In this document: piece by piece, positions 192 to 46,150 of the stretch
How positions within the stretch are numbered: position 1 is the first letter of the stretch
Layout of the letters: each line of letters starts with the position of its first letter
Source: a virus
IMG/VR virus record: IMGVR_UViG_3300018914_000005
Location: 1-46,284 of that record
Direction: 5' to 3' (one strand)
Length of the DNA: 46,284 nucleotides
The notes under the pieces: generated by a model
The model's database searches: none
What the model was told of the DNA's origin: nothing
The model's input: the letters and a program-made list of their open reading frames with translations, nothing else
Translations under genes and position numbers: made by a program

Positions 192-211
192 CGTTTTACA
201 CTCGTTTTACA
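192..211 (+). repeat. Tandem CGTTTTACA repeats, candidate integrase arm sites
   Basis: CGTTTTACA occurs at 192-200 and again at 203-211, about 70-80 bp inside attL and overlapping the 3' end of int. The same 9-mer in the same orientation occurs at 45344-45352 near attR, with a one-mismatch copy at 45396-45404. Short repeats flanking the core on both sides are what arm-type integrase sites look like. Binding is inferred, not shown. Confidence 0.5.
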
Positions 212-1239
212 GATTTCGTTCGCCTTTCCTTCCGCTCGCGCTTGCGCATGGCTGCCTCCGCGAGCCTCACGTCCCGGCCCAGATAGTGAGCATCGAGGAT
301 CGTTTCGACGTCCTTCAGCGAATGGCCGGTGATGGATGCGATCTCCGGCACCGTGCAGCCCGCAAGCGCGAGGCGCGTGACAGCCGAGCCGCGAATGTCG
401 TGGAACGTCACATCATCGACATCGGCCCGTTCGCAGGCTTTTCGCCAGGACGCCCGGAAGCCGTCAGAGGTCCACGAGTTGCCGTCCGTATTGGTGAGAA
501 TGGTAATCGCCCGGCGCTTCGCCTGACTGAGATGGTCCCGCAGCGTGGGTCCAACCGGGATCACCACGCGCCGGCCTGTCTTGGATTGCTTCAGCTTGAT
601 CGTCTTACCGTCATAAGCCGACCAGGGCAGCCGGAGCAGGTCGCCTTGCCGCTGGCCCGTCCAGAGGGCCAGAACCAGGGCCAATTGCAGCTCCTCTGAG
701 GCCGCATCCATGAACCGGGAAATGTGATCCTCGGTCCAGAGGCGTTCGGCCCTTTCCGCCCGATACAGGCGCCCGCCGCGCTCGCATGGGTTGACCGCGA
801 TCCGCCCGCGATCCTTGGCGACGGAGAGCACCCGGGCCAGAACCGTCCAGGCGTAGTCCGCCTTGCGGGGCGTCTCCGCCATGCCGTCCCGCCAGCTCTT
901 GAAATCGCCCCTGACCTCCGGCTCGGCCAATGCCTCGATCGGCATGTCGCCAAACTCAGCTTCGATCAGGTTCAGGTAGGCTTGGTATGCCCGCTTTGAG
1001 CTTGCCGAGAGCCCCTTGTATTCGCTGCTCCCTCTGAACTCCGTCAGAAGCTCGTGCAGCGTGCCGTCTGAGGCGGCTTTCCGCCCCCGGTAGGCCTCAT
1101 GGTAGCTTTCGACAAACTCCGGGCTCCCTGGCTCGCCTTTGAGCCGTGGACCGCCTCTCCAGGCATAGTAGTAGATCGTCCATGTGCCGTCCGCGAGCTT
1201 GCGCGGCACCCGATGGATCCCCTTAAGCACGACGCGCAT
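196..1239 (-). CDS. int: Site-specific tyrosine integrase
   Basis: Phage integrase of about 347 aa that catalyses attP x attB recombination at the adjacent tRNA-Lys gene. The C-terminal catalytic domain shows the expected residues: R197 (TGQRQGD), K220 (SKTGRR), H280-x-x-R283 (HDIRG), H306 (GHS) and the nucleophile Y319 (HYLGRD). The N-terminal part resembles the arm-binding and core-binding domains. An upstream ATG at 1383 is in frame, but I chose 1239 because GGTGGAGGG lies just upstream and the extra 48 residues would overlap the xis-like gene. It sits next to the intact tRNA, as usual for this family, at the distal end of a leftward early operon. Confidence 0.95.
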   Translation of the reverse strand: MRVVLKGIHRVPRKLADGTWTIYYYAWRGGPRLKGEPGSPEFVESYHEAYRGRKAASDGTLHELLTEFRGSSEYKGLSASSKRAYQAYLNLIEAEFGDMPIEALAEPEVRGDFKSWRDGMAETPRKADYAWTVLARVLSVAKDRGRIAVNPCERGGRLYRAERAERLWTEDHISRFMDAASEELQLALVLALWTGQRQGDLLRLPWSAYDGKTIKLKQSKTGRRVVIPVGPTLRDHLSQAKRRAITILTNTDGNSWTSDGFRASWRKACERADVDDVTFHDIRGSAVTRLALAGCTVPEIASITGHSLKDVETILDAHYLGRDVRLAEAAMRKRERKERRTKSVKRV

Positions 1240-1471
1240 CCCTGTTGGCCCTCCACCTCTGATAGGCGCTTTGCGCGACCTCAGAGTCGGATAGGCCGGA
1301 TAATCTGTCCAGAGCCCGGTCGATGGCCCTCCGATCCCAGCGGCGCGTGCCGGGGATGGGCTGGGGGAGCCTGCCTTGGGCAACCCACCGGGAGAACCCG
1401 GACGGGCTCAGGCGGCAATGGCTGGCAGCCTCTTCGCGGGTCAGCAGCCGTGAGGTCTCTGCCTCTCTCAT
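1223..1471 (-). CDS. Excisionase-like / AlpA-type helix-turn-helix protein
   Basis: An 82-aa protein with an N-terminal winged-helix of the MerR/AlpA/Xis kind: a TREEAASHCRLSPSGFSRWV helix-turn-helix at about residues 10-30, then the wing PGTRRWDRRAIDRAL. It directly precedes int and overlaps it by 17 bp, the usual position of a directionality factor that biases Int toward excision. Its ATG overlaps the stop of the upstream gene (ATGA). An AlpA-like transcriptional regulator is the alternative. The fold is fairly clear; the excision role is inferred from position. Confidence 0.75.
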   Translation of the reverse strand: MREAETSRLLTREEAASHCRLSPSGFSRWVAQGRLPQPIPGTRRWDRRAIDRALDRLSGLSDSEVAQSAYQRWRANRDARRA

Positions 1472-37824: not shown

Positions 37825-38613
37825 TCACAGAATAAAGTAGCTCTTCGTGACTGAGCTTACGTTATTGAGCATGAGTTCAAAGTCGGCTTGAGCGTCGCCG
37901 TTGACATCAGCTTGGACATAGGGCTGGGCGTAGATGTCGCCGTACTCGTCTTCGTACTCACTGATCACGAAGCGGAGTTCACCTTTGCGACCGGAGAACT
38001 CGGCATTCCCGATAAAGGTGAAGGCTTGATTGCCAGCAACTCCTGCCTTTGCGTCAATCTTCGAAAGATCGATCTTGTCGCCCTGTGATGCGGAGAAGTC
38101 AGTGATCGTATCGATCTTTGACCAGCGTGACTCAGAGACCGACTTGAAGACGAAGCGGTCGGCTCCCTTGCCACCTGAGAGGATGTCGGCCCCACCACCG
38201 CCGGTGATGGTATCATTGCCGTTGAAGCCGCTGAGGTTATCGCCATAGCGCCCCCCTGTGATCACGTCCTTGCCCGCGAGTGCCGCCTTGAAAACCCTGA
38301 GATCGTCATCAGTGCTGTAGGTGGAGGCCGCGTTGACGAGGCTCAGAACGGAAATCTTGACATTGGTTAATGTTGAGACCTTCCGCCCGGCGTCTACTCC
38401 ACTGTAGCTCGTAACAACACCGCCGGTCGGGATACCATCAACAGTGTAGGTGAAACCGTATCCGTCGAACTTGTCCCATGACCGGCCCAACGTGCCGTAA
38501 ATGGCTCTGAACGTGGTCGGAGACCATTCATAGCGATCGGCCATTGTCAGGTTGCTGAGGTTAAAGTTTTCCAGCGAAAACCCATACGTTCCAGTCCATG
38601 TAAACGTAGCCAT
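37825..38613 (-). CDS. RTX protein 1 with serralysin-type C-terminus, moron
   Basis: 262 aa. The N-terminal ~110 residues are beta-rich and unknown. Residues ~119-152 hold RTX nonapeptide repeats (GGRYGDNLSGFNGNDTITGG) that bind Ca2+. The C-terminal ~110 residues resemble the M10 serralysin C-terminus, ending in a hydrophobic SYFIL tip typical of type I secretion signals. No protease HExxH motif. AGGGGG lies before ATG 38613; a hairpin GTCGGT/ACCGAC (38629-38646) sits in the leader. It is antisense to late genes. Confidence 0.85.
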   Translation of the reverse strand: MATFTWTGTYGFSLENFNLSNLTMADRYEWSPTTFRAIYGTLGRSWDKFDGYGFTYTVDGIPTGGVVTSYSGVDAGRKVSTLTNVKISVLSLVNAASTYSTDDDLRVFKAALAGKDVITGGRYGDNLSGFNGNDTITGGGGADILSGGKGADRFVFKSVSESRWSKIDTITDFSASQGDKIDLSKIDAKAGVAGNQAFTFIGNAEFSGRKGELRFVISEYEDEYGDIYAQPYVQADVNGDAQADFELMLNNVSSVTKSYFIL

Positions 38614-41566: not shown

Positions 41567-41836
41567 TCAGGCCTTCCTAGCCTCACGGACTTCCTGCAGC
41601 CGGCGCATCGTCTCCATGATGGCTTCGGCTGCCGCCTGGCCCCGGATGGCGATCAGGCCCCGGTCGATCACCTTCCCGTTCTCGTCTTTCCGGCCGTTGA
41701 AGAAGGCGTCCCGCTCCTGCTTGGACATCTTCAGGATGGCCCGGGCCTCACACTCGACCCGCCAGTCCTCAGACCAGGTGTTCACGGGCTGGCAGGTGAA
41801 CTCTGAGAGTGCGGTGGTCTCGCGGGAGTAGGGCAT
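41567..41836 (-). CDS. DUF7696-like small phage protein
   Basis: 89 aa: MPYSRETTALSEFTCQPVNT, then SEDWRVECEARAILKMSKQE, and a helical end (GQAAAEAIMETMRRLQEVRE). To my memory this is a common small protein in Rhizobiales phages (DUF7696-like); function unknown. A truncated copy of it lies at 42844-42960. It is 23 bp before the nuclease gene and 62 bp after the RTX 2 gene. Confidence 0.7.
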   Translation of the reverse strand: MPYSRETTALSEFTCQPVNTWSEDWRVECEARAILKMSKQERDAFFNGRKDENGKVIDRGLIAIRGQAAAEAIMETMRRLQEVREARKA

Positions 41837-41898
41837 GTGGAGGGGTGAAGAGAGTTGGGGAGGGGAGGCCCCCTCCTGCTGGTGCTTGCGTTCAGGTA

Positions 41899-42639
41899 TC
41901 AGAGGATGAAGTCATCCTGGTACATGGTCCGGATGCCTTCAATCCTGATCCGGAAGTCGGTCTGTGCGTCGCCATTCACGTCAGCAATGACCCAAGTGTC
42001 ATCATTGGAGTGATAGTAACGAAGTTCACCGGCTTTCCCGCTGAAGGCGCCTGTTCCGATGAAGTTGAGAGTCTGATTCCCCGATATTGTTGTGTTTGCA
42101 TCGATCCCGCTGAGGACGATCTTCTCCCCAAGGTACCCCTGGAATCCCGTTATGAGGTCGTAACCACTTGATCCAGGAGCGAGACGATCGGCGTCAGTGA
42201 AGACATACCGGTCACTCCCGGACCCTCCAGTGAGGCGGTCGTTGCCAGCCCCACCCTCGACGAAATCGTCGCCAGCTCCACCATCGAGAGTATCTGCGCC
42301 TCCTCCCCCTGCAAGATAATCAACGCCACCAAAGCCCTGCAGATAATTGGCGAGGCTATTTCCTGTCACTGTTTCGTTTTCGTCCGTACCTTTGAATGTG
42401 CTCGATTGTTCACCAGGGATCTCAAGCATTCGGCTGTCCATAATGCTTGTGTCGATAGATGAGGCCTTAACAAGCTGATCTACAGAAGTACCCCAACGCG
42501 TCGCCAAGGAACTGAGTGTCGAGCTAACTGTGACTCTGTAAATGCTGGTAACCGCGAATTCAGAGCCGGCGGGGGCTAAAAAATCCGTAGGATCTTCAAG
42601 GTGAGGAGTCGGAGAGTTGTGCTTGGTCTTCCTGGTCAT
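41899..42639 (-). CDS. RTX protein 2 with LysM-like domain, moron
   Basis: 246 aa from ATG 42639 with AAGGAGGG eight bases upstream. Residues ~33-75 resemble a LysM peptidoglycan-binding domain (YRVTVSSTLSSLATRWGTSV, DQLVKASSI). RTX repeats fill ~93-145 (GGGGADTLDGGAGDDFVEGG, AGNDRLTGG). The C-terminus (LNFIGTGAFSGKAGELRYYH, ADVNGDAQTDF) is paralogous to that of RTX 1 and ends in DDFIL, a type I secretion-like tip. It lies between the full and truncated copies of the DUF7696-like gene. Confidence 0.88.
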   Translation of the reverse strand: MTRKTKHNSPTPHLEDPTDFLAPAGSEFAVTSIYRVTVSSTLSSLATRWGTSVDQLVKASSIDTSIMDSRMLEIPGEQSSTFKGTDENETVTGNSLANYLQGFGGVDYLAGGGGADTLDGGAGDDFVEGGAGNDRLTGGSGSDRYVFTDADRLAPGSSGYDLITGFQGYLGEKIVLSGIDANTTISGNQTLNFIGTGAFSGKAGELRYYHSNDDTWVIADVNGDAQTDFRIRIEGIRTMYQDDFIL

Positions 42640-42670
42640 TTGGATGCCCTCCTTGCGAAACGAACCGACC

Positions 42671-42686
42671 ATACCTTATTAGGTAT
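42671..42686. promoter_or_regulatory. Palindrome ATACCT-N4-AGGTAT upstream of RTX 2
   Basis: The arms ATACCT/AGGTAT (42671-42676 and 42681-42686) sit about 32 bp before the RTX 2 start, near a possible TTGCGA-N17-TATGGT minus-strand promoter. The half-sites match the CI operators, but the spacing is N6 between ATACC and GGTAT instead of N5. It may be a variant operator or coincidence. Confidence 0.35.
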
Positions 42687-42843: not shown

Positions 42844-42960
42844 TTAGGGTGCTTGGAGGATGGCCCGGGCCTCGGTCTCGATCCGCCATTCCTCCGACCA
42901 AGTGTTCACGGGCTGGCCAGTGAGCTCGGAGATGGCGGTGGTGTCGCGGGAGAAGGTCAT
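42844..42960 (-). pseudogene. Truncated copy of the DUF7696-like gene
   Basis: 38 codons: MTFSRDTTAISELTGQPVNT, then SEEWRIETEARAILQAP and a stop. It matches the first ~36 residues of the gene at 41567-41836 closely, and the DNA similarity runs on into the upstream GGGGTGAAGAGAG stretch. The C-terminal half is missing. It is probably a leftover of a duplication or insertion of the RTX 2 gene between copies. It might still be translated. Confidence 0.7.
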
Positions 42961-43002
42961 GGGGAGGGTATAGCGGGGAGGGGTGAAGAGAGGGTTGAGG
43001 TA

Positions 43003-43662
43003 TCAGATCTCTTCTAGGTCGCCGAATATTGCGTCGTAATCGACCGGCGGCAGGATGCGTCGGGCCACGAACAGCCCGGTTATCTTCACCTTGGGGAAAC
43101 GTGCGGAAAGAATGGTATGCATCGCGCGATAGTGCGTGCCCGACGTAAGTACGTCATCCACTATGCCAATCCACCGAGGGGCAGGGGCGCAGAGGGTCTC
43201 ATCAATCTCGTAACACTCGATCAGATCGTCGACGGAGTGTCGATTGCCAGTTGTGTGCGCCGCGTCCATGGATCGCTTTTGTTTGACGATCTCGCGAACG
43301 TCCGCCTGACCTCCCCGCATCAAGCGACACACCTGTGTCATGCGATCATCATACTCAGGGTGATCTTTGGTCTTTGATGGCGGAACAGGCACTAGGGTTG
43401 CGCCATTTAGCCAAGCTTCGTTCAGTACTGAGTCGAACAAGCTTGCAACTTGGCGAATAGCTTGGCCCTTATACCGGTACTCGGGTCTATCCTTCCTTAG
43501 AGGGCTCTTCTTCAGATTGTGAATGAGTTGGTTAGTTTGGCTGAATGTGAAATCCCTATGAGAGGTGTACTCATAGAGAAAATAGCAATCGTCGTCCGGC
43601 TTCAGATGGAAGTGGCCCTGGTGAGTCTGGTCGAATTTCTGGATGCGCAGGTTATCGGCCAA
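43003..43662 (-). CDS. ComF-like phosphoribosyltransferase, partner of the DprA-like gene
   Basis: 219 aa from a TTG at 43662, next to the dprA stop; an ATG at 43761, deep inside dprA, is the alternative. The PRPP-binding loop is plain: IVDDVLTSGTH (167-177). The VPVPPSKTKDHPEYDDR segment (91-107) and QKRSMDAAHTTGNRHS (128-143) follow the ComF-type amidophosphoribosyltransferase layout. The N-terminal ~70 residues are family-specific. It would use PRPP to modify a base or nucleotide; the target is unknown. It is co-transcribed with dprA. Confidence 0.8.
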   Translation of the reverse strand: MADNLRIQKFDQTHQGHFHLKPDDDCYFLYEYTSHRDFTFSQTNQLIHNLKKSPLRKDRPEYRYKGQAIRQVASLFDSVLNEAWLNGATLVPVPPSKTKDHPEYDDRMTQVCRLMRGGQADVREIVKQKRSMDAAHTTGNRHSVDDLIECYEIDETLCAPAPRWIGIVDDVLTSGTHYRAMHTILSARFPKVKITGLFVARRILPPVDYDAIFGDLEEI

Positions 43663-44671
43663 GGGCGTCCCAAATGTCGCTCGGCTCGCGGACCCGGATC
43701 GCGCCCTGCTGCTCGAAACGAGCTGGCCAAGTAAGATCCGATCGCTGGAAGCACGAATCAAGAATGAATAGCTTTCTTCCTTGATGCAGCGCTGCTCTAG
43801 CTTGCGTCAAGGTTCCAGACGTCTCTCCTGCTTCAACAATAATAGTTGCTTCGGTAAGCGCGCTCATAGTGACATTGCGCTCTGGAAAGAAGAGGCGGTT
43901 CTGCTGAGGGCCTTGGCGCTCGTACCTGAGCACAGGAACCTGGGATATAACTAAGAAGCGGTCTGCAATTTTCTTTTGAAGAGCCTTGTTCTGCGCCGGA
44001 TATACCTTGCTGAGAGGTGTGCCGATTACGGCGATCGTTCTCCCCTTGGCTTCGAGCGCTGCGGTATGGGCAGCCGTATCGATGCCCGCGGCAAGGCCCG
44101 AAACGACCGTATAGCCCTTTGAGACGAGCTCCCGGCTGATCTTCGCTGCTCGGCGTAGGCCCTCGTCTGAGGGCTTTCGGCTCCCGACGACAGCAATACT
44201 TGGCGTTTCAGTGAGTTCCCAGATCCCGGAGAAGTATAAGAGCTCAACAGGATGGCGAGCGTCGCGTAGCTTCTCTGGGTAGTCGCCAGCATGGTTGATG
44301 CGGACGCCAAAACGGCTCACGCCCGCCTTACGAAAACGCTCAAGGACCTGCGAGGCGCAGTCTTCAGCCACGGCTGGAGAGACGAAATCTGATGGCAAAG
44401 CACCAGGGTCAGCAGCGAAGCGGTCTGCTATTGTTTTGAACGTGGCGCCCTGCTGCAGCCACAGCGCTTCATAGGCGCCGAGCTCACGGTGCGGGACAAT
44501 AGGGGCTTTGGCGGGACCATGCGATTCCATCAGTGACATAAGCATTGCTGACTCACTCAACCGAGGAACAGACACTTCGATCCTGCGCCCAACACGCGCA
44601 CCCGCTGGCACCTCTTCTGTTTTATGGCAGCGAAAGGTTAACGGAAGTAAGCACGTGGAGTCACGCAGCAT
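43652..44671 (-). CDS. DprA/Smf-like protein (SLOG/Rossmann fold)
   Basis: 339 aa. The N-terminal helical part (about 60-120) precedes a Rossmann core: IAVVGSRKPS (159-168), VVSGLAAGIDTAAHTAAL (189-206), FFPERNVTMSAL (261-272) and IIVEAGETSGTLTQA (277-291). Classic DprA loads RecA on incoming single-stranded DNA; this one is prophage-borne and paired with a PRTase, outside the usual competence context. An internal ATG at 44545 is possible. The DNA looks less GC-rich than the flanking phage genes. It shares an 11-bp end with the PRTase start. Confidence 0.85.
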   Translation of the reverse strand: MLRDSTCLLPLTFRCHKTEEVPAGARVGRRIEVSVPRLSESAMLMSLMESHGPAKAPIVPHRELGAYEALWLQQGATFKTIADRFAADPGALPSDFVSPAVAEDCASQVLERFRKAGVSRFGVRINHAGDYPEKLRDARHPVELLYFSGIWELTETPSIAVVGSRKPSDEGLRRAAKISRELVSKGYTVVSGLAAGIDTAAHTAALEAKGRTIAVIGTPLSKVYPAQNKALQKKIADRFLVISQVPVLRYERQGPQQNRLFFPERNVTMSALTEATIIVEAGETSGTLTQARAALHQGRKLFILDSCFQRSDLTWPARFEQQGAIRVREPSDIWDALGR

Positions 44672-44751
44672 GGCAGGGACCGATCTCGAATTGTGGATAA
44701 GATGTGTGAAACTCTAGCTCGTAAGTAGGAACAAATCAAGAACACAACTCT

Positions 44752-44765
44752 TGCCAAGCTTGGCA
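44752..44765. promoter_or_regulatory. Perfect palindrome TGCCAAGCTTGGCA upstream of dprA
   Basis: A 14-bp perfect two-fold palindrome in the 150-bp gap between the hypothetical gene at 44822 and dprA. No T-tract follows, so an operator is more likely than a terminator. Its regulator is unknown. Confidence 0.4.
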
Positions 44766-44821
44766 GGCTGGGTGCTTAGGGCATGTTGTCTTCATCTGGA
44801 AGAGAAGTAGCGCGAGGGGCA

Positions 44822-45298
44822 TCATGCGTGACCTCCCGGAGGCGGCAGGAGCGGGACCATGTGGCCCTGCTCGTAGGCGAGCTGGAGATCCCGCTTAACG
44901 AATTCGCCGATCGTGACGCTCGTGCCCGGCATGACGATATTGCCAAGGAACTCGGTCTCGAACTCGGTAATGCCCGAGGCCACCGCCTCCAGCTTCGCTT
45001 TCACCACGAGGGCCAGGGACCGCCACCGGGCGCGGCAAGCCTGTTCCCAGGCCGCCTGGGCCGCTTCCTTGGTCCTGAGCTTCCCTTGGCCGGGGGTATG
45101 GGTGAATGCCTTGGCCTTTGGATCGGGCATGTTGACCCGAAACATGACGCGCCGGTCGTGCATCGAGAACATGATGACGGCCTGGGTTTCTCCCTCGGCA
45201 TGCATGAACTCGGAGGCTCCGTAGCGGTGGACCGTGTTCCGGATCTCGGCTATGCTCTTATCGGTGGAGACAGAGGTGTCTTCTGCGTAGCGCCTCAT
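44822..45298 (-). CDS. Hypothetical phage protein near attR
   Basis: 158 aa from ATG 45298: MRRYAEDTSVSTDKSIAEIR, VIMFSMHDRRVMFRVNMPDP, then ARWRSLALVVKAKLEAVASG and TEFETEFLGNIVMPGTSV. This is a recognisable, widespread protein of alphaproteobacterial phages without known function, as I recall. It is the first minus-strand gene from the attR side and may head the transcript of the dprA pair, across the palindrome. Confidence 0.75.
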   Translation of the reverse strand: MRRYAEDTSVSTDKSIAEIRNTVHRYGASEFMHAEGETQAVIMFSMHDRRVMFRVNMPDPKAKAFTHTPGQGKLRTKEAAQAAWEQACRARWRSLALVVKAKLEAVASGITEFETEFLGNIVMPGTSVTIGEFVKRDLQLAYEQGHMVPLLPPPGGHA

Positions 45299-45343
45299 TC
45301 GCCCGCCCTCCCATCGCTGAGAGGGGTCGAGAGGGCCGATTTT

Positions 45344-45421
45344 CGTTTTACATTTCTGCTGTAAGTCATTGATCTTTGGTGCTCCGATTGAGTCTCGGTT
45401 TACATCCAAGTCATTGATCTT
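45344..45421 (+). repeat. Right-end repeats: CGTTTTACA and AAGTCATTGATCTT pairs
   Basis: CGTTTTACA (45344-45352) repeats the left-end 9-mer, with a one-mismatch copy CGGTTTACA at 45396-45404. AAGTCATTGATCTT occurs at 45363-45376 and 45408-45421, 45 bp apart, on the inner side of attR. These are likely integrase arm or excisionase sites. Promoter elements for the leftward gene at 45298 may also lie here. Confidence 0.5.
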
Positions 45422-45438
45422 ACTGCGATAAGAGGTGT

Positions 45439-45484
45439 CTCTTAATCAGCGGGTCCAAGGTTCGAATCCTTGCACACCCACCAA
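45439..45484 (+). repeat. attR core (46 bp)
   Basis: Exact copy of 80-125, the 3' half of tRNA-Lys through CCA. It has no 5' half of a tRNA, so it is a remnant of the original chromosomal target and marks the right prophage end. Confidence 0.95.
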
Positions 45485-46150
45485 TGTTTCCCAAGAGCTT
45501 GGTGAAGTTACGGCAGGTTTCGGTAGAGCCTAGCAACCTTATAGCTGCCACAAGCGCAATCTTGATTTCAATCCCAAGCAATGATGGCGTCTGGACAGTT
45601 TTTCCGGGCTTGCCCGGGGTTCATGCTGCTCAAGATGTGGAACTTCCTCAGAGCCTGGGTTGATGTTGGTGCAATGAAGGCGGCGCGTACGGCAAGTTCG
45701 ACTTCTCGTCCCCAATAGGGTCGCTTACCTGCAATTCATCGGCGTCGGGCCCCTGCTAGGAGAAGTATCGGACCTGGCAGGTCGAGCGTCTGCTTCCGGT
45801 TGGAGAGGCAGGGTATCGGGATCACATCCGCTGCCTGGAAGGCGGCTCGCAGCGCCTCGTCCGGGAGGCGCGGCTCAGACCGGTTAATACCTCGTCGGTT
45901 GGTCGGAGAGTAATCCTCGACCCACTTCATCTGAGAAGAACTGGTGCGTCCGTTGGGTCCCCAGTCTGGACATGCGGCAGGAGACAGAGTTCGAGAAACG
46001 CTCGCCTAACTATACGACGAGCCTCTCTGATGAACCTTCTCAGAGGAGCGAATGAAGAGCGTTCAGAACGCGTGCTCTTAGCGCCCTCACAGACGAATGG
46101 GCGCGGTATTGGAAACACCGCGCCGATATTTCTTGCCTTGTACCCTGCCG
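45485..46150. other. Host sequence right of the prophage, no supported gene
   Basis: About 670 bp with only weak open frames (a 64-codon one at 45736-45930 minus, an 85-codon one at 45927-46184 minus). Neither has recognisable content or a good ribosome site. It may be decayed mobile or phage DNA, as is common beside tRNA targets. No repeats or RNA genes seen. Confidence 0.5.

What the first reader, a model, noticed from the sequence alone, without database searches (positions are those of the whole stretch)
43003..44671. DprA-like plus phosphoribosyltransferase pair as a prophage accessory system
Seen: a DprA/Smf-like protein (GSRKPS, SGLAAGID, EAGETSGTL motifs) is followed with an 11-bp overlap by a ComF-like PRTase with an intact PRPP loop. 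Both are on the minus strand near attR, where prophages often carry defence or fitness genes, and the DNA looks less GC-rich. Known: DprA binds single-stranded DNA and ComF-type PRTases share competence ancestry. I recall that DprA/PRTase pairs have been proposed computationally as conflict systems, which I cannot check here. Inference: DprA may sense foreign single-stranded DNA, and the PRTase may change a nucleotide or base in response, giving protection against other phages.
Basis: partly seen in the sequence, partly recalled or inferred. Interest (0 to 1): 0.75.

Follow-up and report, generated by a model that had tools for sequence, protein, structure and literature searches.

The report
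Prophage-borne ShosTA toxin–antitoxin defence pair
Near one end of an integrated bacterial virus sits a two-gene anti-virus module, a DprA-like antitoxin plus a phosphoribosyltransferase toxin, which belongs to the known ShosTA family but carries a shorter form of the toxin than the ones studied in the laboratory.

Summary
A DprA-like gene (43652-44671, minus) overlaps by 11 bp a PRTase gene (43003-43662, TTG start). They sit 0.8-2.4 kb inside the attR of a prophage in tRNA-Lys (46-bp identical att cores). PADLOC names both proteins: ShosA (E 9e-100) and ShosT (E 1e-46). The pair is therefore ShosTA, a published toxin–antitoxin phage-defence system, not a new kind. Pairing is real: 109 of 112 homologous loci with at least 1 kb of upstream sequence have ShosA directly upstream of ShosT. 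All 14 genomes tested also carry a separate housekeeping DprA. The pair is cargo: at the same tRNA-Lys site, one related prophage carries an unrelated gene between the same flanks and another nothing comparable. Refinement: the solved E. coli-type ShosT is a HAD–PRTase fusion of about 424 aa; this one (219 aa) has no HAD domain and a different N-terminal half. It is a short subtype, found in many phyla, for which I found no experiment. Likely action: ShosA restrains ShosT; infection releases it; ShosT uses PRPP, disturbs nucleotide pools and stops the cell. Interest is modest.

The parts
43652..44671 (-). ShosA: DprA/Smf-like antitoxin (N-terminal helical part + Rossmann/SLOG fold). Likely true start ATG 44545 (297 aa).
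   Evidence: PADLOC ShosA PDLC03961 E 9.2e-100; Pfam DNA_processg_A 4e-57; TIGR00732 167.1 bits, below the 191.15 cut-off; AlphaFold pLDDT 93; Foldseek hits DprA 3uqz and ShosA 8zva
43003..43662 (-). ShosT, short form (219 aa): PRTase-fold toxin, TTG start, 11-bp overlap with shosA
   Evidence: PADLOC ShosT PDLC03962 E 1.2e-46; AlphaFold pLDDT 93; Foldseek hits ComF 7p0h and ShosT 8zvc/8zvd
43129..43164 (-). PRPP-binding loop IVDDVLTSGTHY of ShosT (residues 167-178)
   Evidence: D169, D170 and G175 invariant in 61 homologues, T173 in 59 of 61
45439..45484 (.). attR core, 46 bp, identical to attL 80-125 in the 3' end of tRNA-Lys
   Evidence: the same core is in relatives L203 and L123
80..125 (.). 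attL core within tRNA-Lys (49-124)
196..1383 (-). tyrosine integrase beside attL
   Evidence: Pfam Phage_integrase 7e-16; PHROG integrase 2e-45
43001..44814 (.). cargo slot: in relative L203 replaced by about 630 bp with an unrelated 139-aa ORF between flanks 85-87% identical to the window
44822..45409 (-). conserved flank gene (phrog_17260, unknown function) between shosA and attR
   Evidence: 84% identical protein in L203

Best explanation
The pair is a ShosTA toxin-antitoxin defence module of the short-toxin subtype, carried as exchangeable cargo beside the attR of a temperate tailed phage. ShosA (DprA-like) and ShosT (PRTase) are probably co-translated and ShosA keeps ShosT harmless. When another phage infects and disturbs host replication, repair or transcription, the restraint fails. 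ShosT then uses PRPP and disturbs purine and nucleotide pools, which damages DNA and stops the cell before the invader can spread. Shown here: identity, pairing, intact PRPP site, predicted fold, prophage location, slot exchange. Inferred from published work on long-form ShosTA: toxicity, neutralisation, trigger, pool disturbance and protection.
For: PADLOC ShosA 9.2e-100 and ShosT 1.2e-46. ShosA directly upstream on the same strand in 109 of 112 assessable loci; two of the three exceptions carry lesions. PRPP and pyrophosphate loops conserved in 61 homologues. Foldseek matches solved ShosT with PRPP (8zvc) and solved ShosA (8zva). 14 of 14 genomes tested carry a housekeeping DprA over the family cut-off plus a second ShosA below it, and the tree separates the groups. 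Variable cargo at one tRNA-Lys site. Anti-phage activity of a P2-phage DprA-PRTase pair against T7 and lambda and the toxin/antitoxin roles are published.
Against: No experiment on this pair or, as far as I could find, on the short subtype. Its ShosT lacks the HAD domain of the characterised toxins, and a short-form profile matches a long ShosT only at the PRPP loop (12 bits). Foldseek similarity to solved ShosT is modest (TM 0.41, 11% identity), a little below ComF (0.51). The pyrophosphatase and pool effects reported for long ShosT may therefore not carry over. ShosA here is also only distantly related to the solved ShosA.
Confidence: 0.8

Rival explanations
1. Sensor-effector abortive infection, as the first reader and Rousset et al. 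proposed: ShosA senses foreign ssDNA and switches on ShosT, and is not an antitoxin.
For: ShosA keeps the DprA fold and the conserved GxR and SGLA/GID motifs; ShosTA is listed among systems activated by a phage ssDNA-binding protein.
Against: Published ShosA acts as an antitoxin. An orphan homologue L062 without ShosA has lost the PRPP-loop glycine (DDVLTTRKH), as expected if the toxin is harmful on its own; this is a single case.
Confidence: 0.12
2. DNA-uptake or recombination helpers: DprA and ComF homologues that serve phage recombination or host competence rather than defence.
For: Foldseek top hits are DprA (3uqz) and H. pylori ComF (7p0h).
Against: ShosA scores 167 bits, below the DprA equivalog cut-off of 191, and groups with paralogues that coexist with a true DprA in 14 of 14 genomes. 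The ComF match is negligible (E 0.027).
Confidence: 0.04
3. Degenerate or inert cargo: a remnant no longer expressed.
For: No sigma-70-like promoter found by a simple scan; weak starts (TTG for ShosT, no clear ribosome-binding site by eye).
Against: Both reading frames are intact, active-site residues are conserved, and ShosT is 92% identical in a second phage contig. The promoter scan does not suit every bacterium.
Confidence: 0.04

Closest known systems
ShosTA, long form (E. coli APEC O1 ShosA 8zva and the ShosT structures 8zvb-8zvd; Escherichia virus P2_4C9; PADLOC PDLC02997 + PDLC03012)
   Same: DprA-like ShosA next to a PRTase ShosT with an intact PRPP loop; phage-borne; ShosA-then-ShosT order in P2_4C9
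   Different: Long ShosT is about 415-424 aa with an N-terminal HAD-like domain; the window's ShosT is 219 aa, without HAD, and its N-terminal half shows no sequence similarity to it
Short-form DprA-PRTase pairs covered by PADLOC PDLC03961 + PDLC03962 (Burkholderia phage Mana, Pseudomonas phage Riah, E. coli plasmids, many genomes)
   Same: Same lengths, gene order, overlap and conserved motifs; ShosT 31-60% identical apart from one 92% relative
   Different: Nothing essential; the window is a member of this subtype
PsyrTA / RqlHI
   Same: DprA-related antitoxin (PsyrA, RqlI) paired with a toxin; RqlH toxicity needs its PRTase domain (PMC4670107)
   Different: RqlH is a RecQ-like helicase with a PRTase domain; ShosA here matches PsyrA far less well than ShosA (93 against 332 bits)
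Competence DprA and ComF
   Same: Fold family
   Different: Housekeeping genes; ShosA and ShosT fall outside both families by curated score, and ShosA also by tree

Membership tests
ShosTA (as PADLOC defines it) | ShosA profile match | tested here: met
   PDLC03961 331.8 bits, E 9.2e-100
ShosTA (as PADLOC defines it) | ShosT profile match | tested here: met
   PDLC03962 157.5 bits, E 1.2e-46
ShosTA (as PADLOC defines it) | The two genes adjacent and co-directional, conserved across relatives | tested here: met
   11-bp overlap; 109 of 112 loci with at least 1 kb of upstream sequence
ShosTA (as PADLOC defines it) | Intact PRPP-binding site in ShosT | tested here: met
   IVDDVLTSGTHY; D169, D170, G175 invariant in 61 sequences
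ShosTA, long form (biochemically studied) | ShosT with N-terminal HAD-like domain, about 420 aa | tested here: not met
   219 aa; no match to PDLC03012 at E <= 1; short-form profile hits a long ShosT only at the PRPP loop, 12 bits; HAD match present in the long form, weak by Pfam (E 2.5e-4, below its cut-off) and named so in PfAC02a
ShosTA | Toxin neutralised by ShosA; anti-phage activity | not testable with these tools
   published for other members; needs an experiment here
DprA (competence/recombination mediator) | Equivalog score TIGR00732 >= 191.15 | tested here: not met
   167.1 bits; housekeeping copies 200-293, ShosA-type copies 145-173 in 14 genomes
ComF | TIGR00201 score >= 233.55 | tested here: not met
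   14.4 bits, E 0.027; fold similar only, TM 0.51
PsyrTA / RqlHI | RecQ-like helicase toxin next to the DprA-like protein | tested here: not met
   No helicase; the neighbour is a 219-aa PRTase

The most novel reading that the evidence does not exclude
The HAD-less short ShosT is a distinct toxin that shares only the PRTase site with the characterised ShosT and poisons the cell by another PRPP-dependent reaction (possibly acting on another base, nucleotide or macromolecule). Short and long modules lie side by side in several genomes (five loci with a full-length long toxin, one of them a four-gene run in one direction) and may act as a two-tier system.
Probability: 0.3. Interest if true: 0.5.

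Novelty: new member of a known kind. Interest (0 to 1): 0.3.

Why it matters
It places a known phage-defence system in an exchangeable slot of a tRNA-Lys prophage family. It also shows that the relatives gathered here carry a toxin architecture different from the one whose structure and biochemistry are published, so the published mechanism should not be copied onto them without a test.

Tried and rejected
Megablast of the window's right half against phage records: no match. Two genome-search runs failed on a wrong handle. Direct reading of Kimelman 2012, Sberro 2013, Millman 2022, Stokar-Avihail 2023 and Pu 2025: not held; the ShosTA mechanism is therefore cited second-hand from PMC12593503. 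Sequence search of the single ShosT against the PDB found no relative; a profile gave only weak PRTase matches at the PRPP loop, and the fold search settled it. Promoter/terminator and inverted-repeat scans around the pair gave nothing useful. Considered and rejected: housekeeping DprA or ComF. I first assumed that the P2-phage system of Rousset et al. was the same subtype; P2_4C9 carries the long form, so that assumption was dropped.

Full report
What is there. On the minus strand, a DprA-like ORF (43652-44671, 339 aa as read from ATG 44671) is followed by a PRTase ORF whose best start is TTG 43662, giving an 11-bp overlap. Homologues of the DprA-like protein begin near its residue 43, so ATG 44545 is the likelier start. 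The window is an IMG/VR virus record. tRNA-Lys lies at 49-124; its 3' end (80-125) is repeated without a mismatch, 46 bp, at 45439-45484. An integrase lies beside attL, and terminase, portal, capsid and tail-tip genes are present, so this is a tailed temperate phage. The pair lies about 0.8-2.4 kb inside attR. GC is 53% and 57% against 61% overall.

Identity. PADLOC assigns ShosA (PDLC03961, E 9.2e-100) and ShosT (PDLC03962, E 1.2e-46). Pfam sees DNA_processg_A in the first and nothing in the second. The DprA equivalog model scores 167.1 bits against a cut-off of 191.15. AlphaFold models from alignments of 46 and 61 relatives have pLDDT 93. In the PDB the ShosA model matches DprA (3uqz, E 3.5e-20) and E. 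coli ShosA (8zva, E 6.8e-18). The ShosT model matches ComF (7p0h) and then ShosT with PRPP or phosphate (8zvc, 8zvd), at modest TM-scores of 0.51 and 0.41.

Pairing. ShosT relatives were gathered from GTDB genomes (53 loci), IMG/VR and annotated phages and plasmids. Of 118 loci, 109 have ShosA immediately upstream on the same strand, usually overlapping or within tens of bases. Five of the other nine are cut by a contig end. One (L026) has a transposase-like ORF upstream and then the contig end. L011 is a fragment. L062 has no ShosA and a broken PRPP loop (DDVLTTRKH instead of DDVLTxGxH). L066 has ShosA in convergent orientation. So 109 of the 112 loci with at least 1 kb upstream are paired. 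Some loci are the same prophage seen in both collections, so they are not all independent.

Not the housekeeping DprA. In 14 genomes that carry the pair, each has one DprA over the family cut-off (200-293 bits) and a second, ShosA-type copy below it (145-173 bits). In a tree the short-system ShosAs form one group (support 100/100), apart from housekeeping DprA and from long-form ShosA; long branches make the deeper order unsure.

Cargo slot. Relative L203 shares the window's DNA on both sides: 42857-43000 at 87% and 44815-45500, attR included, at 85%. Between them it has about 630 bp with an unrelated 139-aa ORF instead of the 1.8 kb with ShosTA. L123 uses the same att core and the same host flank (90-94%), and its attR lies only about 230 bp from the stretch that matches the window's thermonuclease region, with nothing comparable to ShosTA between. 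L003 has ShosT (92% identical protein) in the same position next to the same two genes, but its contig ends at the ShosT start. Three contents at one position is what an exchangeable slot predicts.

Which ShosTA. The ShosT whose structures are solved has entries of up to 424 residues, and an annotated phage (PfAC02a) and a weak Pfam match show a HAD-like domain before the PRTase domain. The P2-like phage P2_4C9 carries this long form next to its replication gene, matching the PADLOC models PDLC03012 and PDLC02997 at 973 and 765 bits. Rousset et al. validated a DprA-PRTase pair from the P2 hotspot against T7 and lambda (PMC9122126), and the legend of that figure lists HAD among its domain abbreviations; that the tested system is the long form is my inference. 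The window's ShosT has 219 aa, no match to PDLC03012, and a short-form profile meets a long ShosT only at the PRPP loop. PDLC03961 and PDLC03962 match both forms, so they are broad models. The short form's own N-terminal half carries a conserved TNQLIxNLKK stretch with invariant N49 and K65. So the window holds ShosTA by PADLOC's broad models, but a short-toxin subtype. I found no experiment on that subtype; several key papers were not held.

Mechanism. Published, for other members: a review of Pu et al. 2025 states that ShosT is a phosphoribosyltransferase and pyrophosphatase that disturbs purine metabolism, causing DNA duplications, filamentation and death, that ShosA binds DNA and counteracts it, and that T7 Gp0.7 is a trigger (PMC12593503). 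Another paper lists ShosTA among systems activated by a phage single-stranded-DNA-binding protein (PMC10732053). For RqlH, a PRTase-bearing toxin with a DprA-like partner, mutation of the PRPP pocket removes most of the toxicity (PMC4670107). By extension the window's ShosT is expected to be a PRPP-dependent toxin restrained by ShosA. The PRPP site is intact here; toxicity, trigger and product are inferred.

Verdict. Observation confirmed; interpretation right in outline but already known; member of ShosTA, short-toxin subtype; modest interest, mainly for the untested difference between short and long toxins and for the loci where both forms stand together.

Noticed in passing
window 41733-41844 and 42857-42968: A 112-bp direct repeat (85%) is a truncated second copy of the start of a DUF7696 gene (intact copy 41567-41836). 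It brackets an RTX/serralysin-C-like gene (41899-42672), which looks like a later insertion into the same cargo region.
   Followed up: partly
window 37825-38613: A second gene with RTX calcium-binding repeats and a serralysin C-terminal-like domain, also on the minus strand among plus-strand phage genes.
   Followed up: no
L013:4130-7953 (Sphingobium fluviale): Four overlapping or abutting co-directional genes: short ShosA, short ShosT, long-type ShosA, long HAD-PRTase ShosT.
   Followed up: partly
L012, L014, L051, L056, and a partial copy in L010: Long-form ShosT near the short pair; with L013 this makes 6 of 118 loci, not tested against a background.
   Followed up: partly
L066:4998-6526: ShosT and ShosA in convergent orientation, the only inverted arrangement seen; could be a real variant or an assembly error.
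   Followed up: no
E. coli genomes: 685 of 5,426 complete genomes hold DNA of a short-form ShosTA locus but only 38 hold at least 80% of it; the listed partial hits are often a shosT 3' fragment beside an IS30 element, including an O157:H7 strain.
   Followed up: no
L121 and L122 (E. coli M19 chromosome, EC93 plasmid): Short ShosTA lies between cdiA/cdiB-type contact-inhibition genes and a TOTE-primase conflict gene.
   Followed up: no
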